Assembly: GCF_013364355.1 (NCBI RefSeq)
Contig: NZ_CP054931.1
Span: forward strand, 2,914,001-2,978,000
Direction: 5' to 3'
Length of the DNA stretch: 64,000 bases
From: Stenotrophomonas sp. NA06056
Lineage (GTDB): Bacteria > Pseudomonadota > Gammaproteobacteria > Xanthomonadales > Xanthomonadaceae
This document shows positions 40,792-54,730 of this stretch, in pieces (position 1 is the first letter of the stretch; each line of letters begins with the position of its first letter). Made by a program: the position numbers and the translations under genes. The notes under the pieces were generated by a model that ran no database searches, had not been told where the DNA came from, and was given only the letters and a program-made list of their open reading frames with translations.

Positions 40792-41916
40792 ATGCCGAAC
40801 TCCGCCCGCACCCTGTCGATCCTGCTGCCGCTGGTCCTGCTGCTGGCCGCACCACTGGCCTCGGCCCGCGACGTGGCAGCACCCGCAGAGCACGTGGACA
40901 GCGATGGTCCTTACGTATTCCGTGAAGGCGCGCAACTGAAGGCGCAATGGATCTGCCAGGACAAGGTTGAAACCCACACCGTGCAGGCCGGCACCGGGGG
41001 CACGGATGTTGCCGCGCACTGCGGCTACCCGCATGCGGTGCACGTACTGCCGCCGAACGTGCCATCGGTATCGGTGCTACCGGCCGTGCCACGCATCGTC
41101 GCGGTGTCCGACATCCACGGCCAGTACGCCCTGCTGGTCCGCCTGCTGCGCGCCAACCGGGTAATCGACGCGCAGGACCGCTGGGCGCTGGGCACCGACA
41201 CGCTGGTGATCGCGGGCGACGTGTTCGATCGCGGCCCACAGGTGACCGAAGCGTTCTGGCTGCTGTACGGCCTGCAGCAGCAGGCGGCGGCCGCCGGTGG
41301 CGCGGTGCATTTCGTGCTCGGCAACCACGAGACCATGGTGCTCTATGACGACCTGCGTTACGTCAACCCGAAGTACCTGCGCAGCGCGCAACTGCTCGGC
41401 CGCAGCTATCCGCAGCTGTATGGTGCCGACTCGGTGATCGGCCAGTGGCTGCGCACGCGCCCGGTGCTGCTGCGGATCGGCGACACCCTGTTCCTGCACG
41501 GCGGCATCTCGCCCGATGCCGTGCAGATGGCATTGGACCCTGCCCACACCAACGCCGCCTACCAGGCCTCCCTGGGCATTCCCAAGGCCGAGGTGAAGGC
41601 AGACCCCGCCACCGCGCCGCTGTACGACGGCAAGACCAGCCCGATCTGGTACCGCGGCTACTTCGACGGACGCCTGGATACCGAGGGCGTGCAGGCCGTG
41701 CTCGACCGCCTTCAGCTCAAGCGCATCGTGGTCGGCCACACGTCCATGCCACATGTCAGCAGCTTCCACGACGGCCGCGTGATCGCCATCGACAGCAGCA
41801 TCAAGAATGGTGAGAACGGCGAACTGCTGTTCATCGAGGACGGCAAGCTCAGTCGGGGCCTGCTGGACGGTTCGCGGGTGCCACTGGCCAAGGGCGAGAC
41901 CGGGCTGCAGGACTGA
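40792..41916 (+). CDS. Exported Ser/Thr phosphatase-like metallophosphoesterase (Shewanella-like type)
   Basis: Protein of 374 residues with a signal peptide (LSILLPLVLLLAAPLASA) and an N-terminal extension with two Cys, then a complete PPP-type metal site in order: SDIHG, GDVFDRG, LGNHE, FLHGGIS, VVGHT. The arrangement matches Shewanella-like phosphatases, which have two metals and are found in the periplasm or outer envelope. The substrate, protein or small molecule, is unknown. It is followed by a GGGCCAGC hairpin that may end the transcript. Confidence 0.85.
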   Translation: MPNSARTLSILLPLVLLLAAPLASARDVAAPAEHVDSDGPYVFREGAQLKAQWICQDKVETHTVQAGTGGTDVAAHCGYPHAVHVLPPNVPSVSVLPAVPRIVAVSDIHGQYALLVRLLRANRVIDAQDRWALGTDTLVIAGDVFDRGPQVTEAFWLLYGLQQQAAAAGGAVHFVLGNHETMVLYDDLRYVNPKYLRSAQLLGRSYPQLYGADSVIGQWLRTRPVLLRIGDTLFLHGGISPDAVQMALDPAHTNAAYQASLGIPKAEVKADPATAPLYDGKTSPIWYRGYFDGRLDTEGVQAVLDRLQLKRIVVGHTSMPHVSSFHDGRVIAIDSSIKNGENGELLFIEDGKLSRGLLDGSRVPLAKGETGLQD

Positions 41917-41921
41917 ACGAA

Positions 41922-41942
41922 GGGCCAGCGTCGGGCTGGCCC
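41922..41942 (+). terminator. Hairpin after the metallophosphoesterase gene
   Basis: GGGCCAGC-GTCGG-GCTGGCCC, six bases past the stop. It is followed by CGGTCCCCC rather than T residues, so termination is only probable. Confidence 0.5.
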
Positions 41943-42047
41943 CGGTCCCCCACGCCCGCCACCTGCACCCGGTTTGCCGCTACCCTCGGCAGCCGAGAGG
42001 CCCGCCCTGTCCAGCGGGCGGCCCATCCGCCCCCAGGAGCCCCGCGC

Positions 42048-42719
42048 ATGCGCGTTCTCATCGCAGAAGACGATCCCGACATCGCCTCAGGCCTGTGCGC
42101 CTCGATGCGCCGGCAGGGCCACGTGGTCGACCACGTGGACAACGGCGCGCATGCCGATGCCGCACTGAATTCCACCCAGTACGCACTGCTGGTGCTGGAC
42201 CTGGGCCTGCCCCAGCTGGATGGCCGCGACGTGCTGCAACGGCTGCGCCAACGTGGCGATGGCCTGGCCGTGCTGGTGGTCACCGCACGCGATGGCCTGG
42301 CCGAGCGCGTGCGCGTGCTCGACCTGGGCGCCGACGACTACCTGGTCAAGCCCTTTGCGCTGGACGAATTCGAAGCACGCGTGCGCGCACAGCTGCGCCG
42401 GGTCACCAGCAACGGCAACCCCGACCTGCGCATCGGCCGGCTGCGCCTGGACCTGACCGGGCACCGGGTGTGGATCGACGAGCAGACCCTGGAGCTGACC
42501 GCGCGCGAATTCGGCCTGCTATCCGCCCTGGCGGTGCGTGCCGAGCGCATCGTGTCCCGTGCGCAGTTGGTGGAAGCGCTGTGCGACTGGGGCCAGGACC
42601 TGACCGACAACGGCCTGGACATCGCCCTGCACCGCCTGCGCCGCAAGCTGCAGCCGGGCGGCATGGGCATCCGCACGGTGCGCGGGCTGGGCTACATGCT
42701 GGAAGACGCCGGCGCGTGA
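42048..42719 (+). CDS. OmpR-family response regulator
   Basis: Regulator of 223 residues: a receiver domain with EDDPD acidic pair, phospho-Asp in LVLDLGLPQLDG, and Lys in DDYLVKPFALDEFEARV; a winged-helix DNA-binding domain ending GMGIRTVRGLGYMLE. It resembles the QseB/TctD subgroup. The stop codon overlaps the start of the partner kinase (GTGA). Signal and targets are unknown; the biosynthesis-like cluster that follows on the same strand is a candidate target. Confidence 0.9.
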   Translation: MRVLIAEDDPDIASGLCASMRRQGHVVDHVDNGAHADAALNSTQYALLVLDLGLPQLDGRDVLQRLRQRGDGLAVLVVTARDGLAERVRVLDLGADDYLVKPFALDEFEARVRAQLRRVTSNGNPDLRIGRLRLDLTGHRVWIDEQTLELTAREFGLLSALAVRAERIVSRAQLVEALCDWGQDLTDNGLDIALHRLRRKLQPGGMGIRTVRGLGYMLEDAGA

Positions 42720-44095
42720 TCAGCGGACCGCCCAGCCTGCGCCGGCGCCTGCTCGCCTTCCTGGCGCTGCCGATGCTGGGTCTGTTGACCTTCAACACGC
42801 TGCTGGCGTACTACGTGGCGTTGGACTACTCCAACCGCATCCACGACCGCAACCTGACCGACGACACCGTCTCGTTCGCTCAAATGCTCAGCACGATGCC
42901 GGTCAGCAGCGACCTGTCCCCGCAGGCACGTTTCCTCATCGAGTACGACCCCGACGGTCACCGCTACTTCAACGTCGACAGCAGCCGCCTGGGCACCATC
43001 GCCGGCAATGCCGATTTCAGCGCCTATGCACCATCGCAGGACTGCAGCGGCGTGCATCCGGCGCTGTACGAAGGTGAATTGAACGGCCAGCAGGTGCGCA
43101 TGTCGACGGTCTGCACCCAGACCATGAACGATCCGCAGGACCAGCTGGCGGTGACCGTGGCCGAAAGCATGGCCGACCGCCGCCAGCGCGCTCGCGAGAT
43201 CCTGATGATCGTCATTCCGCTGATGACCATGCTGGCCCTGGGAATGGCGGCGCTGGTCTGGTTCGGGGTCACCCATGGCCTGCGCATCCTGACCCCGTTG
43301 ACCTCGCGCCTGGCCCAGCGCCGCGGCGAGCTGGCACCGATTTCCGATGCCGACGTACCGGAAGAAATCCAGCCACTGATCAGTACCATCGATGGCCTGT
43401 TCGCACGGCAGGCGGAAATGATCACGCTGCAGAACCGCTTCATTGCCGATGCCGCCCACCAGTTGCGCTCGCCACTGGCGGGCATGGCACTGCACGTGGA
43501 CCAGGCACTGGCCCACGGCGATCCGGAGACGGTGCGCGAAGCGCTGCAGAACATCCGCCGGCTCAACCAGCGCACCGCGCGCGTCAGCACCCAGCTGCTG
43601 GCGTTGAGCCGTGCCCAGACCGTGCCGGAGACGGTGGAGGCGCTGGACCTGTCCGAACTTGTGCCGCAATGGGTGGGCATGCGCGTGCCCGAAGCGATCC
43701 GCGATGGCATCGACCTCGGCTATCTGGGCCCGCAGCAGCCCGTGCGGATACTGGGCAACGGCGCCCTGCTGCACGAAGCGCTGGACAATCTGATAGACAA
43801 CGCCCTGCGCTACGCAGGCACGGAGGCGACCGTCACGGTAGGCGTGCAGGCGCTGGACGACAACGATGTCGAGCTGTACGTCGAAGACAACGGCCCCGGG
43901 GTACCTGAAGACGTGATGTCGCGGCTGGGGGAACGCTTCTTCCGCGCGCCCGGCACTGCCGCCAGCGGCACTGGCCTGGGCCTGGCCATCGCTCATGAGG
44001 CCGTCGAGCATCTGGGCGGGCGCCTGGGTTACCTCAACCGCCCCGGTGGCGGCCTGAAGGTGTCCATCACCATACCGTTGCTGAAGGGCCCTTGA
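42716..44095 (+). CDS. Sensor histidine kinase (TctE/QseC-like)
   Basis: Membrane kinase of 459 residues. Two transmembrane segments (residues about 10-32 and 165-190) enclose a periplasmic domain of about 130 residues with two Cys (DCSGVHP and TVCTQTMN). The H-box FIADAAHQLRSPLAGMALH and ATPase motifs DNALRYAG, DNGPGVP and GLGLAIAH follow. The start is GTG 42716, overlapping the regulator stop by four bases. Partner of the preceding response regulator. The sensed ligand is unknown. Confidence 0.88.
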   Translation: MISGPPSLRRRLLAFLALPMLGLLTFNTLLAYYVALDYSNRIHDRNLTDDTVSFAQMLSTMPVSSDLSPQARFLIEYDPDGHRYFNVDSSRLGTIAGNADFSAYAPSQDCSGVHPALYEGELNGQQVRMSTVCTQTMNDPQDQLAVTVAESMADRRQRAREILMIVIPLMTMLALGMAALVWFGVTHGLRILTPLTSRLAQRRGELAPISDADVPEEIQPLISTIDGLFARQAEMITLQNRFIADAAHQLRSPLAGMALHVDQALAHGDPETVREALQNIRRLNQRTARVSTQLLALSRAQTVPETVEALDLSELVPQWVGMRVPEAIRDGIDLGYLGPQQPVRILGNGALLHEALDNLIDNALRYAGTEATVTVGVQALDDNDVELYVEDNGPGVPEDVMSRLGERFFRAPGTAASGTGLGLAIAHEAVEHLGGRLGYLNRPGGGLKVSITIPLLKGP

Positions 44096-44174
44096 TCCAG
44101 CCCGGCCGTTGAAAGGTTGCCGAAAATCGCGCTTGCGATGCTGAGCTTCCCGACTGCCGCGCTGGAGCCGACTG

Positions 44175-45011
44175 GTGCCTGCATCCCATGAGTTTTTCCT
44201 TCCCGGTGGCCCGCAGGGCGTTCTGCTGATCCATGGTCTGACCGGCACGCCGGCCGAGATGCGCATGCTGGGCAAAGGGCTGAACAACGCCGGCTTCAGC
44301 GTGCACGGCGTGCAGCTGCCGGGCCACTGCGGCAGCGTCGAGGACCTGCTGCAGACCCGCTGGGAAGAGTGGTACCAGGGCGTGGAAGATGCGGCGGCGA
44401 ACCTGCGCGGCAAGGTTGACCAGTTGTTCGTCGGCGGGCTGTCGATGGGTGCGGTGCTTGCGCTGGCATTGGCGGCGCGCCGCCCGGACTGGGTCTCCGG
44501 CGTGGGCGTGTACGGCGCCACCTTCCGCTACGACGGCTGGAACATTCCGGCCGTCGCGCGCTTCTCGTTCCTGCTGCCGTGGTTCAAGCGCCTGGGCATC
44601 GGCCGCGACCGCATGTTCATGGAAGAGCCGCCATATGGCCTGCGCGATGAGCGCCTGCGTGCGCAGGTCAGCGCCGCCATGCTGTCCGGTGACAGTGCCG
44701 CTGCCGGCCTGCCGGGCAATCCGTGGCATGCGTTGGCCGAAATGCGTGCGCTGAGCAGCTGGACGCGCCGCCACCTGCACCAGGTCACGGCACCCTGCCT
44801 GGTGATGCACGCCCGCGAAGACGACGTGGCCAGCATGGGCAATGCCGAACTGGTGATCTCACGCGTCAGCGGACCGACCGAACTGGTGGTGCTGGAAGAC
44901 AGCTACCACATGATCACCATCGATCGCGAACGGCGCGAGGTGATCCGTCGCAGCGCGCGTTTCTTCAGCGACATTGGCGAACGTGCGGGCGCGCTGCAGG
45001 CGGTCGCCTGA
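44175..45011 (+). CDS. Alpha/beta hydrolase, Est30/carboxylesterase-like
   Basis: Protein of 278 residues with the alpha/beta-hydrolase pattern: VLLIHGLTGTPAEMR (oxyanion HG), the nucleophile elbow GGLSMGAV with Ser, an Asp in MHAREDDV and a late His in DSYHMITIDRE. This is a full Ser-Asp-His set as in carboxylesterase Est30 and monoglyceride lipases, which cleave small esters or thioesters. No signal peptide, so cytoplasmic. The start GTG 44175 leads directly into the following pair of small membrane proteins (one-base gap), which suggests a shared pathway. Confidence 0.85.
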   Translation: MPASHEFFLPGGPQGVLLIHGLTGTPAEMRMLGKGLNNAGFSVHGVQLPGHCGSVEDLLQTRWEEWYQGVEDAAANLRGKVDQLFVGGLSMGAVLALALAARRPDWVSGVGVYGATFRYDGWNIPAVARFSFLLPWFKRLGIGRDRMFMEEPPYGLRDERLRAQVSAAMLSGDSAAAGLPGNPWHALAEMRALSSWTRRHLHQVTAPCLVMHAREDDVASMGNAELVISRVSGPTELVVLEDSYHMITIDRERREVIRRSARFFSDIGERAGALQAVA

Positions 45012-45012
45012 G

Positions 45013-45372
45013 ATGGGATCGCTTGCCACCCTGCTGTGGCTGGTCAACGTGGTGCTCGACACCGGCGGCCAGCTGGCCTTCAAGGCTGCCGCCAGCGACC
45101 CGCAGGACGGCGAAGGCCTGCAGCGTTGGAAGCACATGTTCGGCCGTCCTTGGCTGTGGCTTGGCATCGCCTGCTACGTGCTTGAGTTCGTCGCCTGGAT
45201 CGCCTTCCTGTCGCTGGTCCCGTTGTCGCAGGGCGTGCTGCTCGGCTCGATCAACATCGTTGCGCTGATGGTCGCCGGCCGCATCCTGTTCCGCGAGCGG
45301 CTGACGCCGTTACGGGTGACCGGCATGCTGCTGGTCAGCGCCGGCGTTGCCGTCGTTGGAGCCGGAACATGA
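45013..45372 (+). CDS. Half-size EamA/SMR-type membrane protein, first of pair
   Basis: Protein of 119 residues with four membrane segments, starting MGSLATLLWLVNVVLDTGGQLAFKAAASD and ending with the VTGMLLVSAGVAVVGA helix. It has the four-helix layout of the SMR/EamA superfamily, in which ArnE/ArnF are heterodimeric flippases of a lipid-linked amino sugar. It overlaps the next gene by four bases (ATGA), and that gene encodes the likely partner. ATG 45013 follows the hydrolase stop by one base; a longer frame from 44974 would overlap the hydrolase gene. Confidence 0.8.
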   Translation: MGSLATLLWLVNVVLDTGGQLAFKAAASDPQDGEGLQRWKHMFGRPWLWLGIACYVLEFVAWIAFLSLVPLSQGVLLGSINIVALMVAGRILFRERLTPLRVTGMLLVSAGVAVVGAGT

Positions 45373-45767
45373 GGCGGCTGTATCTGGTCGGCTTCCCGCT
45401 GCTGATGGCCTTCGACACCTTGGCCCAGCTGTGCTTCAAGTATGCCGGCGACGCCGCGCTGCCGGTGGAGGCCAACACCGCATGGCTGCTGCGCGTGCTG
45501 TCGCAGCCCTGGGTGTACGGCGCGATGCTGGGTTACGTCGGCGCGTTCTTCACCTGGATGAGTCTGTTGCGGCACGCGCCGATCGGCCCTGCATTCGCCG
45601 CTTCTCATCTGGAAGTGATCAGCGTGCTGCTGCTTTCGGCGTGGCTGCTGCACGAGCCGTTGACGCTGCATCACCTGATCGGTGCGGTGCTGATCGTGGC
45701 CGGCATCATCTGCCTGGGCCGTGCCGAGGCGGATGATCCACATGCTGCAACCGAACCAAGCCCGTGA
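45369..45767 (+). CDS. Half-size EamA/SMR-type membrane protein, second of pair
   Basis: Protein of 132 residues with four membrane segments (PLLMAFDTLAQLCFKYAG, VYGAMLGYVGAFFTWMSLL, AASHLEVISVLLLSAWLL, LIGAVLIVAGIICLGR). The AQLCFK and GAVLIVAGI patterns fit EamA/SMR members. It differs clearly from the upstream protein, so the two probably form a heterodimer. Both ends overlap neighbours by four bases (ATGA and GTGA), strong evidence of translational coupling into the aminotransferase gene. The transported compound is unknown; a lipid-linked or soluble amine is a reasonable guess. Confidence 0.8.
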   Translation: MRRLYLVGFPLLMAFDTLAQLCFKYAGDAALPVEANTAWLLRVLSQPWVYGAMLGYVGAFFTWMSLLRHAPIGPAFAASHLEVISVLLLSAWLLHEPLTLHHLIGAVLIVAGIICLGRAEADDPHAATEPSP

Positions 45768-46966
45768 GCCTGCTGTCGCGCGAATTGCCGCCCACCGCCG
45801 GCCTGCCGTTGCAGGCCAGCGATTTTCTTCCCGGCGGTGGCGACCTGCGCACGATTCTCGCCGAACAGCTGGGCACGCCACCGCTGCAGCTGACCTGCTC
45901 GGGCACCCACGCCCTGCTGATCGCCCTGCGCACCCTGCGCAGGCGCGCGCCGCAACGCGATACGGTGATCCTGCCGGCCTATACCTGCCCGCTGGTGCCG
46001 ATTGCCGTGCACAGCCTCGGCCTGCGCATACAGCTGTGCGATACCCGCCGCGACCACTTCGACTTCGACCCGGCTGCCCTGCATGCCACAGCCAATGCGC
46101 GCACGCTGGCGATCATTCCCACGCATCTGGGTGGGCGTATCGCCGATGTCGATCGCGCCTGTGCGATCGCGCACGGCGTCGGCGCGTGGGTGATCGAGGA
46201 CGCTGCGCAGGCACTGGGTGCCCGCGTGGCCGGCAACAGCGTGGGCCTGCGCGGCGATATCGGTTTCTTCAGCCTGGCAGCCGGCAAGGGCCTGAGCCTG
46301 CATGAGGGCGGCCTGCTGCTGACGCATGACGAAGCACTGCGTGCGGCATTGATCGAGCAGGGCGCAGGACACACGCCCTTCAGCCTGCGCTGGGAGCTGA
46401 CCCGCAGCCTGCAGCTGCTGGGCCTGGCGGCCTGCTACCGCCCTTCCCTGCTGTCGCTGGTGTATGGAAATCCGTTGCGGCGTGCCCTGCGCCGTGGCGA
46501 CCTGGAAGATGCGGTGGGTGATGTGTTTCCGTTGGACATTCCGCAGCATCGCGTCAGCCGCTGGCGGCAGAACGTCGGTGCGCACGCAGCGCAGCGCCTG
46601 CCCGCCTTCCTGCAGGCGGCCCGCCTGCGCGCGCTGCAGCTGCGCGTGCAGCTGGAATCACTGCCTGCCGTTGAAGTGGTGGACGGAATGCCTGGCACCC
46701 TCGGCACCTGGCCGATGCTGATGCTGCTGCTGCCCAGCGAACGTGCGCGTGACAAGGCGCTGTCCGCGCTGTGGCAGCGCGGCCTGGGTGTCAGCCGCAT
46801 GTTCATCCATGCCTTGCCGGACTACGCCTATCTGCGTGGCATCGTTGCAGATGCGCACGTACCCAATGCCCGCGACTTCGCCGCCCGCTGCCTGACCGTG
46901 GGCAACAGCCCCTGGCTGACCCCTGCAGACACCCGCGAGATCGTGAAGGTGCTGGCGGCCCAGTAG
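45764..46966 (+). CDS. DegT/DnrJ/EryC1/StrS-family PLP aminotransferase
   Basis: Protein of 400 residues of the sugar-aminotransferase-like family. Visible family features are LTCSGTHALLIALRTL (cofactor phosphate site), ILPAYTCPLVPIAV, VIEDAAQALGARVAG (Asp binding the pyridine N) and FFSLAAGKGLSLHEGGLLLT with the cofactor Lys. Members aminate keto-sugars or cyclitols. The start is GTG 45764, overlapping the upstream membrane protein stop. A 161-bp gap, without a recognised gene, separates it from the HAD gene. Whether the substrate is a sugar nucleotide is not known; no other sugar-nucleotide enzyme is nearby. Confidence 0.85.
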   Translation: MSLLSRELPPTAGLPLQASDFLPGGGDLRTILAEQLGTPPLQLTCSGTHALLIALRTLRRRAPQRDTVILPAYTCPLVPIAVHSLGLRIQLCDTRRDHFDFDPAALHATANARTLAIIPTHLGGRIADVDRACAIAHGVGAWVIEDAAQALGARVAGNSVGLRGDIGFFSLAAGKGLSLHEGGLLLTHDEALRAALIEQGAGHTPFSLRWELTRSLQLLGLAACYRPSLLSLVYGNPLRRALRRGDLEDAVGDVFPLDIPQHRVSRWRQNVGAHAAQRLPAFLQAARLRALQLRVQLESLPAVEVVDGMPGTLGTWPMLMLLLPSERARDKALSALWQRGLGVSRMFIHALPDYAYLRGIVADAHVPNARDFAARCLTVGNSPWLTPADTREIVKVLAAQ

Positions 46967-47127
46967 TGGCTGAAGCCCGGCGAGGCCTGCTTCGCGTCAC
47001 TGGCTGAACGCTTCCCGAGTGCCTCTGTTCAAGCTTTCAGGCGGAAAGGAACGAGAAAGACGGCCTGCCTACATTGGCCCCGTCGCCGGCATCGTGCCAA
47101 CGCCTCTCTTCATCGACGGAGCTGCCC

Positions 47128-47814
47128 ATGCAATGGAGCATCCTGTGTGACTTCGATGGCACCATCAGCCTCGAGGACGTCATCGATTCACTGTTGGAAA
47201 AGTTCGGCCAACCCGGTTGGCAGCAGCTGGAAGATCAGTGGCGCTCGGGTGAGATCGGCTCGCGTGAATGCATGCAGGGCCAGGTCCGTCTGCTGAAGCT
47301 GGATCCGGCCACACTCGATGCACACCTGGACCAGGTACGGATCGATCCGGGCTTTGCCGCCTTCGTCAATCGCGCACATGCGTTGGGCCTGCCACTGCGC
47401 ATCGTCAGCGACGGTCTGGATTACGCGATCCATCGCATACTCGCCAACCATGGCCTGCCGCCGCTGCCCGTAGTGGCCAACCATCTGCGCTGGTGTGACG
47501 GCCATTGGCAGCTGGAATCCCCCTACCAGGCGGAAGGCTGCCGCAGCGGCACCTGCAAGTGCACCTGCGCGGCGCAGGCGCGTGGCGACGAAGCCCCTCG
47601 TGTGCTGATGATCGGTGATGGCGCTTCGGATTTCTGCGTATCCGAACACGCCGATTTCGTATTCGCCAAGCGTCGCCTGATTACCCATTGCGCAAACGCC
47701 GGCATCCCCCACGCCGCCATCGACACCTTCCACGATGCTGCCGCGCTGCTGCCGCGCCTTCTCGACGGCAGCCTGCTTCAGCCCTCGCTTCCGCGGTTGC
47801 TCGCCACCGCCTGA
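47128..47814 (+). CDS. HAD-IB family phosphatase, MtnX/SerB-like
   Basis: Phosphatase of 228 residues: motif I LCDFDGTIS with the nucleophile Asp, motif II Ser in LRIVSDGLDYAI, motif IV VLMIGDGASDFCVSEHADFVFAK. This is the pattern of phosphoserine phosphatase and of MtnX of the methionine salvage pathway, but no other methionine-salvage gene is here. An odd insert with the Cys-rich run GCRSGTCKCTCAAQ between motifs III and IV could bind a metal. ATG 47128 follows GGAG by seven bases. It lies 48 bp before the class III aminotransferase gene. Confidence 0.85.
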   Translation: MQWSILCDFDGTISLEDVIDSLLEKFGQPGWQQLEDQWRSGEIGSRECMQGQVRLLKLDPATLDAHLDQVRIDPGFAAFVNRAHALGLPLRIVSDGLDYAIHRILANHGLPPLPVVANHLRWCDGHWQLESPYQAEGCRSGTCKCTCAAQARGDEAPRVLMIGDGASDFCVSEHADFVFAKRRLITHCANAGIPHAAIDTFHDAAALLPRLLDGSLLQPSLPRLLATA

Positions 47815-47862
47815 TCGCTCCGCCCGTTGCTTCCTTCGAATGTCCTCTCCGGAACCGAACCG

Positions 47863-49263
47863 ATGAATATTTTTGACAAGAACGCCGATGCCGCCATCAC
47901 CGATGCGCAGCTGCTGGCAGACGAAGCCCGCTACAGCTCCTTCGGCGACACCGTGCACTACGTCGATCCGCCGAAGATTTTCCAGCGCTGCGAAGGCAGC
48001 TACATGTTCGATGCCGCCGGCACCCCGTACCTCGATCTGCAGATGTGGTACTCGGCCTGCAACTTCGGTTACGCCAACCAGCGCCTGAACGATGCGCTGA
48101 AGGACCAGATCGACACCCTGCCGCAGGTCGCCAGCCAGTATCTGCACCCCACGCGCGTGCAGCTGGCCAAGACCATCGCGGTGGACATGCACGAGAAGTT
48201 CGGCCTCGACGGCCGCGTGCACTTCAACGTCGGTGGCGCGCAGGCGGTGGAGGATTCACTGAAGATCGTCCGCAACGCGCGCAACGGCAAGAGCCTGATG
48301 TTTGCGTTTGAAGGCGGCTACCATGGCCGCACCCTCGGCGCCTCGTCGATCACCTCCAGCTACCGCTACCGCCGCCGCTACGGCCACTTCGGCGAACGCG
48401 CGATGTTCATCCCGTTCCCGTATCCGTTCCGTCGTCCGAAGGGCATGACCCCCGACGAGTACTCCGACCACTGCGTGCACCAGTTCGAGCGCCTGTTCGA
48501 AAGCGAGTACAACGGCGTATGGGATCCCAAGGTCGGCCAGGCCGAGTACGCCGCGTTCTACGTCGAGCCGATCCAGGGCACCGGCGGCTACGTCATTCCG
48601 CCGCGCAACTTCTTCAAGGGCCTCAAGCGCGTGCTGGACAAGTACGGCATCCTGATGGTCGTCGATGAGATCCAGATGGGCTTCTGGCGCACCGGCAAGC
48701 TGTGGTCCATCGAACACTTCGGTGTCACCCCGGACGTGCTGGTGTTCGGCAAGGCACTGACCAACGGCCTCAACCCGTTGTCGGGCCTGTGGGCGCGCGA
48801 AGAACTGATCAATCCGACCGTGTTCCCGCCGGGCTCCACCCACTCCACCTTCAATTCCAATCCGCTGGGTACGCGCCTGGGCCTTGAAGTGTTGAAGCTG
48901 GGCAAAGAGATGGATTACGAACGCACCGTTCCGGAAAAAGGCGCTTACTTCCTCGACGGCCTGCGCGGCCTGCAGAAGCGCCATCCGGAAATCGGCGATG
49001 TCGATGGCCTCGGCCTGGCGCTGCGCGCGGAAATCTGCGCTGCCGATGGCTTCACCCCGAACCGTGAGCTGCTGGACCGCATGGTCGACATCGGCCTGGC
49101 CGGCGACCTGCTGCACGACGGCAAGCGCATGGGCCTCGTGCTCGATGTCGGTGGCTGGTACAAGAACGTGATCACCTTCGCGCCCTCGTTGAACATCACC
49201 TACGAAGAGATCGATCTGGCGATCACCCTGCTGGACCAGCTGCTGACCAAGGCCAAGGGCTGA
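47863..49263 (+). CDS. Class III (GABA/ornithine-type) PLP aminotransferase
   Basis: Protein of 466 residues. Motifs match class III aminotransferases: FNVGGAQAVEDSLKI, FEGGYHGRTLGASSIT (cofactor site), AFYVEPIQGTGGYVIPPR, LMVVDEIQMGFWRTGKLW (Asp-Glu-x-Gln motif) and the Lys in LVFGKALTNGLNPLSG. Substrates in this class are omega-amino acids or diamines such as GABA, ornithine or diaminobutyrate. The N-terminus is rather unlike the GABA transaminases, so the substrate is left open. ATG 47863 is chosen over an opening at 47827. Confidence 0.88.
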   Translation: MNIFDKNADAAITDAQLLADEARYSSFGDTVHYVDPPKIFQRCEGSYMFDAAGTPYLDLQMWYSACNFGYANQRLNDALKDQIDTLPQVASQYLHPTRVQLAKTIAVDMHEKFGLDGRVHFNVGGAQAVEDSLKIVRNARNGKSLMFAFEGGYHGRTLGASSITSSYRYRRRYGHFGERAMFIPFPYPFRRPKGMTPDEYSDHCVHQFERLFESEYNGVWDPKVGQAEYAAFYVEPIQGTGGYVIPPRNFFKGLKRVLDKYGILMVVDEIQMGFWRTGKLWSIEHFGVTPDVLVFGKALTNGLNPLSGLWAREELINPTVFPPGSTHSTFNSNPLGTRLGLEVLKLGKEMDYERTVPEKGAYFLDGLRGLQKRHPEIGDVDGLGLALRAEICAADGFTPNRELLDRMVDIGLAGDLLHDGKRMGLVLDVGGWYKNVITFAPSLNITYEEIDLAITLLDQLLTKAKG

Positions 49264-49286
49264 GTGGAAATGCGCTGCCGGTTCCC

Positions 49287-50360
49287 GTGCCCCGCATGGA
49301 CATGATTCCGCGTGTATCCAGCACCGCGCTGGAACCGGCCGCGCTGCTGGAGGGCTTCCTGGCCCACCCGCCCCTGGGCTTCGATGCCAGCCGCCTGCCC
49401 AGCGGCCTGCCCAGCTTCCGGGCGCCGCTGGATCTGACCACGACCCTGGACGATGCAGTGCGCTCGCGCCTGCTGCGGCAGCCGCTGTCGCGCCTGTGGC
49501 GGCCGTGGCTGACCTGGCAGACGCGGTTCATCGGCGCCACCAGCACCGAGTACACACCGCTGCCGGCGCACGTGTCGGCGGCGGCCCTGGCCGACGATGT
49601 GCTGCGCCACGGCGTCGGTGACAGCCGGCTGCTGGTGGTCAAGGATCTGGCGATCGATTCCCCGTTGCTGGACGACGCCGCCAACGCGCACAGCCAGGCG
49701 TTCCTGCAGGCGCTGCTGGAACGCGGCTTCATCCAGCTGGAAGGCATGCCGCTGGCATGGGTGGCGATCGATTTCGATTGCATCGACACCTACCTGGCGC
49801 GCCTGTCCACGGCGCGGCGCAAGAACATCCGGCGCAAACTGCGCTCGCGTGCCCACCTGCAGATCGACTGCATCGCTACCGGCGACCCCGCGCTTGCCGA
49901 GCCACGGCTGCAGGCCGAACTGCACGCGCTGTACCTGCAGGTGTATGCGCAGAGCGCGGTGCATTTCGATCAGCTCGACCTGCCCTTCTTCCAGCACCTG
50001 CTGGCGGACACGCAGGGTCAGGGCCGCATGTTCCTTTACCGCCACAACGGCGAGCTGATCGGTTGGAACCTGTGCTACGTGCACGCCGGCAAACTGGTGG
50101 ACAAGTACATCGGCCTGTCCTATCCGCAATCGCGCGACCACAACCTGTACTCGGTCAGCTGGATGCACAACCTGGAGTACGCGTTGCAGCACGGCCTCAG
50201 CCACTACGTCGCCGGCTGGACCGATTCACGCATCAAGGCCGAACTGGGTGCCCGCTTCACCTCCACCGTGCATGCCGTGCACGCGCGTTCGCCCCTGCTG
50301 CGCGCCGCCCTGCGCAGACTGGCACCGCACCTGCAGGGTGAGCCGGATGGAGGGGGCTGA
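49287..50360 (+). CDS. FemAB/GNAT-like acyl- or aminoacyl-transferase (peptidogalycan type)
   Basis: Protein of 357 residues matching the DUF482-like GNAT superfamily: an N-terminal half with LVVKDLAIDSPLLDDA, then FDCIDTYLARLSTARRKNIRRKL, and a C-terminal GNAT-like portion with FLYRHNGELIGWNLCYVHAGKLVDKYIGL and HYVAGWTDSRIKAELGARF. FemAB relatives transfer amino acids from tRNA, or acyl groups, onto cell-envelope or metabolite amines. No membrane segments. The start is uncertain: GTG 49287 or ATG 49296 or 49302; the coding frame is open upstream to the previous stop. The ribosome-binding site is weak, hinting at coupling. Confidence 0.75.
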   Translation: MPRMDMIPRVSSTALEPAALLEGFLAHPPLGFDASRLPSGLPSFRAPLDLTTTLDDAVRSRLLRQPLSRLWRPWLTWQTRFIGATSTEYTPLPAHVSAAALADDVLRHGVGDSRLLVVKDLAIDSPLLDDAANAHSQAFLQALLERGFIQLEGMPLAWVAIDFDCIDTYLARLSTARRKNIRRKLRSRAHLQIDCIATGDPALAEPRLQAELHALYLQVYAQSAVHFDQLDLPFFQHLLADTQGQGRMFLYRHNGELIGWNLCYVHAGKLVDKYIGLSYPQSRDHNLYSVSWMHNLEYALQHGLSHYVAGWTDSRIKAELGARFTSTVHAVHARSPLLRAALRRLAPHLQGEPDGGG

Positions 50361-50363
50361 CCG

Positions 50364-51248
50364 ATGCAACTGCGCCCCCCGCTGATCCTCGACCTTGATG
50401 GTGGCGTACTGCCCTTGCCGCAGGCACGCACGCTCGCGCTGCAGCACTGGCATGATCCGCTGCGCTTCGCCTGCCGCAACGGCACGCTGTCACGCTTCGC
50501 AGATGAAGTTCTGTCGCCGCTGCCGGCACAACTCGGCACGGTGATGCTCGGCAGCGGCGACTTCCATCATCTCAGCCTGCCGCTGCTGCAGCGCCTGCAC
50601 ACGCGTGCCCCGTTCCAGCTGGTGGTGCTGGACAACCATCCGGACAACATGCGTTTTCCCTTCGGCATGCACTGCGGTTCCTGGGTGAACGCCGCCGCGG
50701 CGTTGCCACAGGTATCGCATGTGCACGTGCTGGGCATCACCTCCCGCGATATCGGCCGGGGCCATGCGTGGGAGAACCACTGGCGGCCCCTGCTGGGACG
50801 GCGGCTGACCTACTGGTGCATGGACGTGGATGTGGGCTGGGCCAGCCGCATGGGCATGGCGGGCGCCTTCCGTCGCTTCGAACATCCCGAGGCGCTGGTC
50901 GCCGCGTTCGCCGCCGAACAGGCGCAGTCACCCCGTCCCAGCTATCTGTCTATCGACAAGGACGTGTTCGCTGAAGAGGTAGCGCGCAGCAACTGGGACC
51001 AGGGCCGCTTCCAGCTTGAGCACGCACTGATGGTGATCGAAGCCCTGCGTACCGGTGGACTGGTGGGCAGCGATATCACCGGCGAGGTGTCACTGGCCAA
51101 CTATCAGAGCCGTTTCAAGCGCTGGCTGTCGTCGCTGGATGGGCAACCGGATATCAGCGCTGATGATCTTCCTGTATGGCAGACGCGACACCAGCAGGTG
51201 AACCGCGAACTGCTGGCGGCGCTGGCCGCAGTCCCGACTGCCTGCTGA
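50364..51248 (+). CDS. Arginase/ureohydrolase-fold protein (UPF0489-like)
   Basis: Protein of 294 residues with metal-binding motifs of the ureohydrolase fold: GSGDFHHLS, VVLDNHPDNM (the DxHxD-type motif) and SIDKDVF (the SxDxDxxD-type motif). These suggest a two-metal hydrolase, but the sequence is far from arginase or agmatinase and nearer to the UPF0489/C5orf22 group, whose activity is not established. AGGGGG lies seven bases ahead of ATG 50364. It is the last gene of the cluster and ends directly before the SMAG array. Confidence 0.7.
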   Translation: MQLRPPLILDLDGGVLPLPQARTLALQHWHDPLRFACRNGTLSRFADEVLSPLPAQLGTVMLGSGDFHHLSLPLLQRLHTRAPFQLVVLDNHPDNMRFPFGMHCGSWVNAAAALPQVSHVHVLGITSRDIGRGHAWENHWRPLLGRRLTYWCMDVDVGWASRMGMAGAFRRFEHPEALVAAFAAEQAQSPRPSYLSIDKDVFAEEVARSNWDQGRFQLEHALMVIEALRTGGLVGSDITGEVSLANYQSRFKRWLSSLDGQPDISADDLPVWQTRHQQVNRELLAALAAVPTAC

Positions 51249-52115: not shown

Positions 52116-52328
52116 ATGGGCATCGTCAACATCGATGACACCCTGCACGACCAGCTGCGCCGTGCCTGCACCGTCTCCAACCGCTCGATCAATGCCCAGG
52201 CCACGTTCTGGATCCGGGTCGGCATGCTGTGCGAGATGAACCCGACCCTGAGCTTCCAGGACGTCGTCGCCAGCGAACTGCGCGCCGCCGGCGTGCAGCC
52301 GCAGCTGCTTGCGCCCGGGCGGGCGTGA
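52116..52328 (+). CDS. ParD-like antitoxin (ribbon-helix-helix)
   Basis: Protein of 70 residues, MGIVNIDDTLHDQLRRACTV..., resembling the ParD-like antitoxin family: a beta strand (GIVNIDDTLHDQLRRA), then SNRSINAQATFWIRVGMLCEMN and an Ala/Pro-rich tail. No ParE-like toxin gene follows; instead a methionine aminopeptidase begins four bases after its stop. ATG 52116 lies behind a palindromic promoter. It is not in the usual frame opened at 51999, which overlaps the VOC gene. Binding of the palindrome is inference. Confidence 0.75.
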   Translation: MGIVNIDDTLHDQLRRACTVSNRSINAQATFWIRVGMLCEMNPTLSFQDVVASELRAAGVQPQLLAPGRA

Positions 52329-52332
52329 GTCG

Positions 52333-53121
52333 ATGGCCATGATCAAGCGCCCCGACGAGATCGACCGCCTGGCCGAGTCCGGACGGCTGCTGGCGCAGGT
52401 CTTCGCCATGCTCGACGCACTGCCCCTGCAGGGCCGCAGCACGCTGGAGATCAACGACATCGTCGAACGCATGATCGTCGACGACCTGCAGGCGCGGCCC
52501 GCCAGCAAGGGGCAATACGGGTTCGCGTACGTGCTCAACGCCTCCATCGACAACGTCATCTGCCACGGCATGCCGTCGGCCGATGACGTGCTGCGCAACG
52601 GCCAGATCGTCAACCTCGACATCACCCTGGAGAAGAACGGCTACATCGCCGATTCCAGCACCACCTACCTGGTGGGCGAGGTCGACTACGCCGCGCGCAA
52701 GCTGGTACAGGTGACCTACCAAGCCATGTGGAAAGGCATCGCCGCTGTGCGGCCCGGCGCGCGCCTGGGCGATATCGGCCACGCCATCGCCCGCCATGCC
52801 CGCAGCCACGGCTACAGCGTGGTGAAGGAATTCTGCGGCCACGGTATCGGCCAGGAAATGCACGAGGAACCGCAGATCCTGCACTACGGCCATGCCGGCA
52901 CCGGCATGGAACTGCAGGAAGGCATGGTGTTCACCATCGAGCCGATGCTCAACCAGGGCAAGCCGGCGATCCGCCAGCAGCCCGACGAATGGCCGGTGTA
53001 CACCCGCGACGGCAAGCTGTCGGCGCAGTTCGAGCACACCGTCGCGGTCACCCGCAGCGGCGTGCGGGTGCTGACCCTGCGCCCCGGCGAAACGCCATTG
53101 TGCGCGGTGGATGCTGCCTAG
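52333..53121 (+). CDS. Type I methionine aminopeptidase (paralogue next to ParD-like gene)
   Basis: Cobalt/manganese-type enzyme of 262 residues that removes the initiator Met. All expected residues are visible: His78 (VICHGMP), Asp96 and Asp107 (VNLDITLEKNGYIADSS), His170 (GHGIGQEMHEEP), the Glu in FTIEPM and the Glu in AQFEHTVAVT. Most xanthomonads carry an essential map near rpsB, so this may be a second copy. It follows the ParD-like gene by four bases and its stop overlaps that of the convergent argO. Start ATG 52333. Confidence 0.88.
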   Translation: MAMIKRPDEIDRLAESGRLLAQVFAMLDALPLQGRSTLEINDIVERMIVDDLQARPASKGQYGFAYVLNASIDNVICHGMPSADDVLRNGQIVNLDITLEKNGYIADSSTTYLVGEVDYAARKLVQVTYQAMWKGIAAVRPGARLGDIGHAIARHARSHGYSVVKEFCGHGIGQEMHEEPQILHYGHAGTGMELQEGMVFTIEPMLNQGKPAIRQQPDEWPVYTRDGKLSAQFEHTVAVTRSGVRVLTLRPGETPLCAVDAA

Positions 53122-53732
53122 AGCGGGCGCAGCAGCAACAGCAGCGCCAGGCACAGCATGAAGGCGGCCACGCCTGCATCCAGCAACCGCCATGCGGCCG
53201 CGTTGCGGAACACCGGCTGCAGCAACCTTGCGCCAAACCCCAGCCCGCAGAACCACAGCACGCTGGCCACGCAGGCGCCCGCCGCGAACGCCCAGCGCAG
53301 GTCGCCCGGATAGCGCGTGGACAGGCTGCCCAGCAGCACCATCGTATCCAGGTAGACGTGCGGGTTGAGCAGGGTGAACGCCAGGCAGGCCAGCAGCACC
53401 TGCCGCCGGTTGCCACCACTGGCATCGGCCGCGTCCAGCGCGCTGCCACCGCGCCATGCGCGCAACCCGGCCTGCAGGCCATAGCACAGCAGGAAGGCGG
53501 CCCCGCCGAAGCGCAGCACCTGCAACAGCAGCGGCCACTGCAGTACCAGCGCGCCCATGCCGCCCACGCCGGCCAGGATCAGCGCGATGTCTGCGCCCAT
53601 GCAGGCCAGCACCACCATGCCCACGTAGCGACGCTGCAGCCCCTGCCGCAGCACGAAGGCGTTCTGCGCGCCGATGGCGATGATCAGGCCGGCACCCGCG
53701 AACAGGCCGGCCAAGCCCGCAGCAATCCACAT
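53118..53732 (-). CDS. argO: LysE-family arginine exporter ArgO
   Basis: Inner-membrane protein of 204 residues with about six hydrophobic segments and the LysE signatures IAIGAQNAFVLRQGLQR and FTLLNPHVYLDTMVLLGSLS. The family exports arginine and lysine analogues such as canavanine. It is divergent from an ArgP-type LysR regulator with 104 bp between starts, the same arrangement as in E. coli. ATG 53732 is chosen over a longer frame. Its stop overlaps that of the convergent aminopeptidase gene by three bases. Confidence 0.88.
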   Translation of the reverse strand: MWIAAGLAGLFAGAGLIIAIGAQNAFVLRQGLQRRYVGMVVLACMGADIALILAGVGGMGALVLQWPLLLQVLRFGGAAFLLCYGLQAGLRAWRGGSALDAADASGGNRRQVLLACLAFTLLNPHVYLDTMVLLGSLSTRYPGDLRWAFAAGACVASVLWFCGLGFGARLLQPVFRNAAAWRLLDAGVAAFMLCLALLLLLRPL

Positions 53733-53836
53733 CCGACGCTCTCCACCGTGAAAGGAGGCGCAGGGTGCGACCAACTGACCCATTAAGGCCAGCTGGATTT
53801 TCTTTATCCTATGCAGAAAAACTGAAGAGGTATCGC

Positions 53837-54730
53837 GTGGACCTGGTACATCCGCAGTTGAGCGCCTTCACTGCGGTGCTCGAAGAAGGCAGCTTCGAGG
53901 CCGCCGCACGCCGCTTGTCAATCAGCCCGTCGGCGTTGTCGCAACGGATCAAGGCGCTTGAGGACCGGCTGGGCCAGGTGCTGGTGGTGCGCCAGGCGCC
54001 ATGCCGGCCTACCGCTGCCGGCGAAGTGCTGCTGCGGCGGGTGCGGCCAATGCAGGCGCTGCAGGCCGAAGCGCTGGCCGAACTGCTGCCGGAACGCGGC
54101 AACGATGCCACCCGCACGCCGATCCCGCTGGCCGTCAACGATGATTCGCTGGATACCTGGTTCGTCGCCGCAATCGCCGAGCTGCACCAGCGTCATGCCT
54201 ATCTGTTCGACCTGCGCATGGACGACCAGGACCACACCCTGGAACTGCTGCGCAACGGCAGCGTGCTGGGCGCGGTCACCGCCGAACGCAAACCCCTGAA
54301 GGGCTGCAACGTGCATCCGCTGGGTGCGATGCGTTACCACGCCATCGCCTCACCAGCCTTTGCGAAACGCCACTTCGGCAAGGGCATGCTGGCGGACACA
54401 TTGGCGTCGGCACCGATGATCGTGTTCAACCGCAAGGATGAACTGCAATGGCGCTTCCTGCGCAGGCTGACCCGTGCACGCCTGCAACCGCCCGTGCACT
54501 ACCTGCCCTCCTCCACCGGCTTCGTCGATGCTGCCGCGCGCGGACTCGGCTGGTGCCTTGCTCCGGAGGCGCTGGTCACGCCAGCGGTACAGGCCGGGCA
54601 GGTAGTGGTGCTGGAACCTCGTCGCTGGCTGGACGTACCCTTGTTCTGGCAGCATGCCGCCGTGCGTTCGAGCACGCTGCAGCACATCACCCAGGCGCTG
54701 CGCACCGCCGCTGGCAATACCCTACGTTGA
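53837..54730 (+). CDS. argP: ArgP/IciA-type LysR regulator
   Basis: LysR-family regulator of 297 residues: an N-terminal winged helix (LSAFTAVLEEGSFEAAARRLSISPSALSQRIKALEDRLG), then a two-lobe effector domain. The ArgP family type is supported by LVVRQAPCRPTAAGEVLLRRVRP and by the divergent argO-like gene, which E. coli ArgP activates with arginine. The start is GTG 53837 with GAAGAGG six to seven bases upstream; the open frame extends 24 codons more, into the argO promoter. Confidence 0.85.
   Translation: MDLVHPQLSAFTAVLEEGSFEAAARRLSISPSALSQRIKALEDRLGQVLVVRQAPCRPTAAGEVLLRRVRPMQALQAEALAELLPERGNDATRTPIPLAVNDDSLDTWFVAAIAELHQRHAYLFDLRMDDQDHTLELLRNGSVLGAVTAERKPLKGCNVHPLGAMRYHAIASPAFAKRHFGKGMLADTLASAPMIVFNRKDELQWRFLRRLTRARLQPPVHYLPSSTGFVDAAARGLGWCLAPEALVTPAVQAGQVVVLEPRRWLDVPLFWQHAAVRSSTLQHITQALRTAAGNTLR

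What the first reader, a model, noticed from the sequence alone, without database searches (positions are those of the whole stretch)
44175..51248. Unassigned aminotransferase, transporter and ligase-like cluster; possible new amine-modification pathway
Eight genes on the plus strand: alpha/beta hydrolase, two half-size EamA/SMR-type membrane proteins, DegT-type aminotransferase, HAD-IB phosphatase, class III aminotransferase, FemAB/GNAT-like transferase and arginase-fold protein. The first four are tightly coupled (one-base gap or four-base overlaps). Together they have two PLP enzymes, a phosphatase, a transferase, a possible ureohydrolase and a paired transporter, a set that could make and move an amino compound. 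A two-component system lies directly upstream. I know of no described pathway with this set, though I cannot search. It is the best candidate for an undescribed system in the window.
Basis: partly seen in the sequence, partly recalled or inferred. Interest (0 to 1): 0.72.

Follow-up and report, generated by a model that had tools for sequence, protein, structure and literature searches.

The report
Two-component-controlled amine pathway gene cluster
A block of eight genes in a Stenotrophomonas-type genome, together with the two-component sensor beside it, looks like one jointly inherited and jointly switched-on pathway of unknown product, probably an amine-bearing molecule for the cell envelope, for which no description was found.

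Summary
The eight genes are there as described and form one system. Orthologues stay together across Lysobacterales, partly in rearranged order. In the genus, the arginase-fold gene (ARG), class III aminotransferase (AT3) and DegT occur in the same 36 of 91 genomes; of 398 phylum genomes, all 16 with ARG carry AT3. The borders were too narrow: the upstream two-component system belongs, and many relatives add an acyl carrier protein, a ketosynthase and a divergent MipA/OmpV gene that this locus lacks. A tandem box, GAAAGG-N5-GAAA plus a -10-like element, precedes both operons; the strict pattern occurs exactly twice in the 4.52-Mb genome, at those promoters. In loci classed as having an NtrC-type regulator, a sigma-54-type site replaces the box before the same gene: 8 of 8, against 0 of 79 others. 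Catalytic residues are conserved and dN/dS is below 1 for every gene tested. No NCBIfam equivalog cut-off seen was met, and ten paper searches found no description. The product is unknown; best guess: a sensor-controlled, flipped, amine-bearing envelope compound. A role in cationic-peptide tolerance is possible but unproved.

The parts
42048..42719 (+). OmpR-type response regulator (RR)
   Evidence: ORF; orthologue beside the cluster in many Lysobacterales loci; not itself scanned against Pfam or NCBIfam
42716..44095 (+). sensor histidine kinase (HK), 2CSK_N-HisKA-HATPase
   Evidence: Pfam, as the C-terminal part of the open frame 41807-44095; start about GTG 42716
44111..44142 (+). promoter box for the ABH operon: GAAAGG-N5-GAAA and -10-like element
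   Evidence: one of only two strict matches in the genome; conserved
44175..45011 (+). alpha/beta hydrolase, monoacylglycerol-lipase-like (ABH)
45013..45372 (+). EamA/ArnE-like small membrane protein 1
45369..45767 (+). EamA/ArnE-like small membrane protein 2
45764..46966 (+). DegT-family PLP aminotransferase
47044..47075 (+). promoter box for the HAD operon: GAAAGG-N5-GAAA and -10-like element
   Evidence: second of the two strict matches in the genome; conserved
47128..47814 (+). HAD-IB, MtnX-like phosphatase (open frame from 47074)
47863..49263 (+). class III PLP aminotransferase AT3 (open frame from 47827)
49287..50360 (+). FemAB/GNAT-type transferase
50364..51248 (+). arginase-fold metallohydrolase (ARG)

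Best explanation
This is one dedicated, co-regulated biosynthetic system. An envelope signal is read by the adjacent histidine kinase (in many relatives perhaps with the MipA/OmpV outer-membrane protein). The response regulator binds tandem GAAAGG boxes and switches on both operons. In the cytoplasm the class III and DegT aminotransferases put amino groups on keto precursors, the HAD enzyme removes a phosphate, and the FemAB/GNAT enzyme couples the amine to an acyl or aminoacyl group supplied by carrier-protein chemistry (a dedicated ACP and ketosynthase in many relatives, presumably the housekeeping ones here). The arginase-fold enzyme hydrolyses a guanidino- or amide-type bond, the lipase-like hydrolase trims or remodels the product, and the EamA pair flips the amine-bearing product outwards. 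Shown by sequence: the gene set, its joint inheritance, the two matching promoter boxes, the regulator/promoter switch, conserved active-site residues. Inferred: regulator binding, the order and substrates of all steps, the lipid-type nature and place of the product.
For: All-or-none inheritance: ARG, AT3 and DegT in the same 36 of 91 genus genomes; 16 of 16 ARG-positive phylum genomes carry AT3, one of them on another contig. Rearranged layouts with the same genes. Correlated divergence for the six gene pairs tested (rho 0.76-0.91, 0 of 999 permutations each). Box upstream of HAD in 71 of 87 loci, ABH 56 of 104, ACP 37 of 78, but AT3 0 of 88, ARG 0 of 112, DegT 0 of 91, FemAB 1 of 112; random 330-nt windows 47 of 4000. 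Exactly two strict matches in the own genome, 0 in the two genus genomes without the cluster, 0 for the reversed pattern in all 16. Sigma-54-type site upstream of HAD in 8 of 8 NtrC-type loci and 0 of 79 others. Lipid or envelope hints: lipase-like ABH, ACP and ketosynthase with conserved active-site residues, MipA/OmpV, HlyD/ABC/FtsX/TolC-type genes at L162 and, by eye, at L055, L148 and L169.
Against: No product, substrate or phenotype is known. No glycosyltransferase or acyl-activating ligase was recognised in the set, so the coupling chemistry is guesswork. EamA proteins also move soluble metabolites. ACP, ketosynthase and MipA are absent from this locus; ARG, FemAB and DegT were not found near AT3 in several distant genomes; and three loci (L062-L064) have ARG, FemAB, ABH, EamA, ACP and ketosynthase without HAD, AT3 or DegT nearby, so not every step can be obligatory. 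Eight of the 79 'other' loci have neither promoter type. FemAB had no meaningful solved-structure relative and no structural model was obtained.
Confidence: 0.5

Rival explanations
1. The cluster makes a diffusible small molecule (signal or antibiotic-like metabolite) that is exported, and the two-component system senses that molecule or the need for it.
For: Exporter-type genes beside the cluster in L162 and by eye in L055, L148, L169; ACP and ketosynthase in many relatives; patchy presence, 36 of 91 genus genomes.
Against: No exporter genes beside the window's locus; ArnEF-like small transporter pair, lipase-like hydrolase and MipA/OmpV neighbour fit an envelope product better.
Confidence: 0.27
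2. It is a diverged arn-like route that flips a carrier-lipid-linked amino sugar for LPS, with DegT as sugar aminotransferase and the EamA pair as flippase.
For: DegT nearest solved relatives are sugar aminotransferases; best NCBIfam matches of the EamA halves are ArnE and ArnF; two-component control.
Against: All Arn equivalog cut-offs missed by a wide margin; no ArnA, ArnC, ArnD or ArnT among the 15 window genes scanned; DegT is missing in the distant loci that keep the EamA pair.
Confidence: 0.15
3. Separate ordinary genes (GABA use, methionine salvage, arginine breakdown) that merely lie side by side.
For: Each protein belongs to a large, common family.
Against: Joint presence and absence, shared promoter boxes, equivalog cut-offs not met.
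Confidence: 0.04

Closest known systems
arnBCADTEF (L-Ara4N lipid A modification)
   Same: DegT-type aminotransferase, two small EamA-type subunits, two-component control
   Different: No ArnA, ArnC, ArnD or ArnT recognised; extra class III aminotransferase, HAD, FemAB, arginase-fold and lipase-like enzymes; ACP and ketosynthase in relatives
AlmEFG, glycine addition to lipid A (recalled, from no call)
   Same: A carrier protein used for an amine-bearing envelope modification
   Different: No AlmE-like ligase or AlmG-like acyltransferase recognised; a ketosynthase beside the carrier protein instead
Ornithine-lipid synthesis OlsBA (recalled, from no call)
   Same: GNAT-fold transferase that could acylate an amine from an acyl carrier protein
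   Different: No OlsA-like acyltransferase recognised; aminotransferases, phosphatase and flippase extra
ParRS with MipA-MipB of Pseudomonas aeruginosa (PMC10936184; passages seen)
   Same: Two-component system beside a MipA/OmpV gene; the paper reports polymyxin sensing and a two-component system next to mipA in most loci it screened
   Different: No biosynthetic set in the passages seen; the window itself lacks MipA
Arginase/agmatinase/guanidinopropionase family
   Same: Weak but ordered profile match and metal-ligand pattern
   Different: Invariant NWDQG stretch after the DKD motif where arginases have another loop; no NCBIfam match at E up to 0.001

Membership tests
arn / L-Ara4N system | ArnB, ArnE, ArnF equivalogs above NCBIfam cut-off | tested here: not met
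   DegT: ArnB model 72.8 of 631 bits; EamA1: ArnE 31.1 of 92, ArnF 24.6 of 99; EamA2: ArnE 34.1 of 92, ArnF 30.2 of 99
arn / L-Ara4N system | ArnA, ArnC, ArnD, ArnT in the operon | tested here: not met
   none among the 15 window genes scanned with Pfam (10, 5); the rest of the genome was not searched for them
4-aminobutyrate use | class III enzyme reaches the GABA transaminase equivalog cut-off | tested here: not met
   TIGR00700 195.3 of 506.65 bits
Methionine salvage (MtnX) | HAD enzyme reaches the MtnX equivalog cut-off | tested here: not met
   TIGR03333 91.9 of 303.2; only the subfamily models TIGR01489 (95.1 of 81.55) and TIGR01488 (70.4 of 45) are met
Ureohydrolase (arginase) superfamily | family match and metal-binding residues | tested here: met
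   PF00491 26.4 of 22 bits; His68, Asp90, His92, Asp94, Asp198, Asp200 in 107 of 107; His103 in 105, Glu241 in 97 (Asp in 10); ligand roles recalled
Ureohydrolase (arginase) superfamily | hydrolysis of a guanidino substrate | not testable with these tools
   needs the purified enzyme
FemAB/GNAT-6 transferases | Pfam gathering cut-off | tested here: met
   PF04339 48.9 of 27 and PF13480 43.6 of 22 bits
FemAB/GNAT-6 transferases | donor (aminoacyl-tRNA, acyl-ACP or acyl-CoA) | not testable with these tools
   no structural model obtained
Regulon of the linked two-component system | promoter class matches regulator class | tested here: met
   sigma-54-type site in 8 of 8 NtrC-type loci and 0 of 79 others; box in 0 of 8 and 71 of 79; binding itself not tested
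Polymyxin/cationic-peptide response | induction by, or altered tolerance to, cationic peptides | not testable with these tools
   only indirect: MipA/OmpV neighbour in relatives

The most novel reading that the evidence does not exclude
The cluster is an arn-independent, carrier-protein-based route to a new class of amine-bearing envelope lipid, switched on by its own envelope-sensing two-component system. It would be the missing surface modification that helps arn-less Stenotrophomonas and many other Lysobacterales withstand cationic peptides, with the S. maltophilia complex running a stripped-down version that has lost the dedicated ACP, ketosynthase and MipA.
Probability: 0.2. Interest if true: 0.85.

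Novelty: new variant of a known kind. Interest (0 to 1): 0.62.

Why it matters
A widely conserved pathway with conserved active sites and its own private promoter code, but no name, is a ready target: regulator, boundaries and members are now defined well enough for one deletion series and one lipid/metabolite comparison to reveal the product. One author group reports no arn operon and no pmrD in the released S. maltophilia genome, yet polymyxin B MICs of 32-256 ug/ml for clinical isolates (their unpublished data; PMC4861329, passages seen), so whether this cluster contributes is directly testable. The swap of an OmpR-type regulator and its box for an NtrC-type regulator and a sigma-54-type promoter before the same gene is also a clean natural case of regulator replacement.

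Tried and rejected
Rejected: chance neighbourhood and separate pathways (see rivals). The phosphoesterase gene upstream (40792-41916) was found only in loci of the window's genus, all of the window-type layout (13 of the 80 loci; L051, L052, L174-L176). Of the 14 loci only L051 and L052 share the glyoxalase, ParD-like, methionine aminopeptidase, LysE and LysR genes downstream. All these are left out of the system.

Led nowhere: ten full-text searches, judged by titles and abstract starts (in only 15 of 23 and 15 of 28 papers were listed), gave no paper describing the set; two searches gave leads. Passages of three papers were looked at: PMC10936184, PMC4861329 and PMC9426598 (a polymyxin-inducible two-component regulon of Burkholderia thailandensis that includes a MipA/OmpV gene, but no set like this in the passages seen). 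Promoter/terminator scan: 0 promoter-like sites, 2 terminator-like sites against a shuffle mean of 5.1. The first sigma-54 scan had an indexing error in my script and was redone. The strict box at four places outside the HAD/ABH promoters precedes a PAP2 gene beside the cluster of G328, a formyltransferase-like gene (G050, named by eye), an HlyD-like gene and an unclear place (both G006). A single-sequence ARG search of solved structures found nothing.

Limits: loci include genomes fetched twice (L052/L078, L059/L139, L077/L175 and L131/L146 by equal contig lengths; L145/L169 and L151/L167 are pairs of stretches of one genome) and many close relatives, so the p-values overstate independence. 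Many loci are cut by contig ends, so absence there is weak. NtrC-type loci were classed partly by similarity: L154 and L163 by family models, the others by similarity to these or to each other; L155 was classed with its sister L154 because its own two-component genes were not in the stretch. L164 has an NtrC-type regulator about 3 kb away, was counted as 'other', and has neither promoter type; the other seven with neither are L148, L149, L150, L162, L165, L166 and L170. The 80 loci were chosen by ARG similarity and are the best 80 of 525. Background windows include the real sites. In one search, matches covering under 60% of the reference and translations with a stop were dropped; the reference row is counted, so for ACP and ketosynthase the L059 copy counts twice. 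Residue roles, arginase ligand positions and the sigma-54 consensus are recalled. AT3 and HK rows show only the best 25 of 69 and 78 families; the window's RR was not scanned.
Full report
What is in the window. The window is G000:C1:2914001-2978000 of a 4.52-Mb, one-contig genome. Its genus holds a genome (G098) whose contig length equals that of a [Pseudomonas] hibiscicola ATCC 19867 record, and its closest named ARG relatives are Stenotrophomonas maltophilia and kin (mostly 84-87% identical), so the host is most likely a Stenotrophomonas near the S. maltophilia complex (inference). Likelier starts are ATG 45013 for the first EamA gene, ATG 47128 for HAD (the promoter element overlaps the TTG at 47074) and ATG 47863 for AT3.

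One inherited unit. In 119 family genomes, close ARG relatives (E below 1e-87) occur in 12, close FemAB (E below 1e-100) in the same 12, and close full-length DegT in 11 of them, the twelfth being split over contig ends; three more genomes have distant ARG and FemAB. In 91 genus genomes ARG, AT3 and DegT are found in the same 36 and not in the other 55. In 398 phylum genomes ARG occurs in 16 and AT3 in 26, including all 16; in one genome AT3 lies on another contig and in another about 12 kb away, so the tie is not only physical. In another genus ARG is in 19 of 20 genomes. Six gene pairs tested have diverged in step (Mantel rho 0.76-0.91; 0 of 999 permutations each).

Anatomy across relatives. 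Eighty loci fetched by ARG similarity (best 80 of 525; Stenotrophomonas, Dyella, Rhodanobacter, Frateuria, Luteibacter and others) contain FemAB in 80, DegT 71, EamA2 69, EamA1 68, ABH 67, ACP 61, ketosynthase 61, HAD 53, AT3 52, HK 37 and RR 34 (a few more of HK and RR at low identity), some loci being cut by contig ends. Two genomes of the window's own genus show a convergent layout, RR-HK-ABH-EamA1-EamA2-DegT facing HAD-AT3-ACP-KAS-FemAB-ARG, like that of other genera and so probably ancestral; window-type loci have all genes in one direction and no ACP or ketosynthase between AT3 and FemAB. No dedicated ketosynthase was found elsewhere in the own genome: the best match is 44% identical, as in the ordinary FabF range, against 60-61% between dedicated copies of different genera. 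A MipA/OmpV gene lies divergently just upstream of HAD in 31 loci (two genomes counted twice; one, L174, a weak fragment), and a PAP2 phosphatase takes that place in four others; 122 stretches were scanned. The window has neither. In distant genomes the set changes: Pseudomonas-like and alphaproteobacterium-like loci (names inferred, not given by the tool) have HAD, AT3, ABH, EamA pair, FemAB, ARG, two-component genes and MipA but no DegT match; others show AT3, HAD and ABH, some with ACP and ketosynthase, without ARG or FemAB in the stretch. Against a fixed set, L062-L064 have ARG, FemAB, ABH, EamA, ACP and ketosynthase without HAD, AT3 or DegT nearby. HlyD, ABC, FtsX and TolC-type genes adjoin the cluster in L162, and similar ORFs were seen by eye in L055, L148 and L169 (the L055 efflux protein by Pfam).

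The enzymes look active. Putative metal ligands of ARG (His68, Asp90, His92, Asp94, Asp198, Asp200) are kept in 107 of 107, with His103 in 105 and Glu241 in 97; PLP lysines of DegT and AT3 in 87 of 87 and 80 of 80; HAD catalytic residues in 82 of 82; ABH serine in 98 of 99; ketosynthase Cys-His-His in 78 of 78; ACP serine in 76 of 76. Pairwise dN/dS against four genus relatives is below 1 for every gene (0 to 0.61), and lowest for AT3 in the two more distant comparisons. ABH's nearest solved relatives are bacterial monoacylglycerol lipases, HAD's is MtnX, AT3's are an alanine/serine racemase and GABA-type aminotransferases, DegT's are perosamine synthetases and other, mostly sugar, aminotransferases. 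ARG's profile finds arginase, guanidinopropionase and agmatinase only weakly; FemAB's finds no meaningful relative.

One regulon. Comparing upstream regions showed a tandem box GAAAGG-N5-GAAA with an 11-base period, followed at fixed distance by a -10-like element. With at most one mismatch it lies upstream of HAD in 71 of 87 loci, ABH in 56 of 104 and ACP in 37 of 78, but AT3 in 0 of 88, ARG 0 of 112, DegT 0 of 91, EamA1 0 of 96, KAS 0 of 79, FemAB 1 of 112, RR 1 of 63 and the upstream phosphoesterase 0 of 19; random windows from the same loci score 47 of 4000. The strict pattern was then searched in 16 chosen whole genomes: the own genome has exactly two matches, window 44111-44142 (before ABH) and 47044-47075 (before HAD); the two genus genomes without the cluster have none; the reversed control pattern has none in any. 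Of 30 matches in 14 genomes, 26 are at HAD or ABH promoters of the cluster; of the other four, one precedes a PAP2 gene beside the two-component genes in G328. In the eight loci classed as NtrC-type (see limits), the box is missing and a sigma-54-type site (at least 10 of 12) lies 54-70 bases before the inferred HAD start in 8 of 8; among 79 other loci 0 have such a site and 71 have the box, leaving 8 with neither. Background rates for 150-base windows of NtrC-type loci were 272 of 20,000 for the sigma-54-type site and 60 of 20,000 for the box; for the other loci 131 and 169 of 20,000. A sigma-54-type site also precedes ARG in 3 of 5 loci checked. Regulator type and promoter type have changed together, the strongest sequence evidence that the adjacent two-component system controls the cluster. 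Against it, the regulator's own gene rarely carries the box (1 of 63), so autoregulation is not indicated; binding itself is not shown.

What it does. No step has a known substrate. The lipase-like hydrolase, the carrier protein and ketosynthase, the ArnEF-like halves and the MipA/OmpV neighbour together favour an amine-bearing envelope product, with a diffusible metabolite as main rival. MipA with MipB in P. aeruginosa is reported as a polymyxin sensor acting through ParRS, and a two-component system next to mipA was reported in most loci screened there (PMC10936184, passages seen). S. maltophilia is reported to lack arn and pmrD (PMC4861329, passages seen). These make a cationic-peptide role worth testing but do not show it.

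Known or new. Among the NCBIfam rows shown, no scanned member meets an equivalog cut-off; subfamily cut-offs are met by HAD and by the relatives' ketosynthase. Ten full-text searches listed no paper that describes the set by title or abstract start; most subscription papers are not in that library, so this is not proof of absence. I rate it a new variant of a known kind: a sensor-controlled amine/envelope-type pathway built from known families in a combination not found described.

Noticed in passing
window 52116-52328 and 52336-53121: A ParD-like antitoxin-family gene sits directly before an M24-family (methionine-aminopeptidase-like) gene; the pair is kept in close relatives L051 and L052.
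   Followed up: partly
window 53118-53783 (-) and 53765-54730 (+): LysE-type exporter divergent from a LysR-type regulator, an ArgO/ArgP-like arrangement, about 1.9 kb downstream of the arginase-fold gene; of 14 loci only L051 and L052 share it, so probably unrelated.
   Followed up: partly
L077 and L175: A contig filed as Bacillus subtilis SK7B5 (66,366 bases) carries this cluster; the held genome G578, with a contig of equal length, is classed in the window's genus, so the record name looks wrong or the assembly mixed.
   Followed up: partly
L174 from about 9672: A weak MipA/OmpV match stays divergent from HAD where L175 has a full gene: probably a decaying copy on the way to the window-type locus.
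   Followed up: partly
L209 (G006, about 2,035,000): The strict promoter box also precedes a 424-aa HlyD-like gene far from the cluster, a possible extra regulon member in that genus.
   Followed up: no
L152 9399-9483 and 11325-11409; similar in L153 and L171: Repeated inverted pairs with TGGGAGGGGGCTTGC-type arms around the cluster in the Pseudomonas-like loci, probably dispersed palindromic repeats.
   Followed up: no
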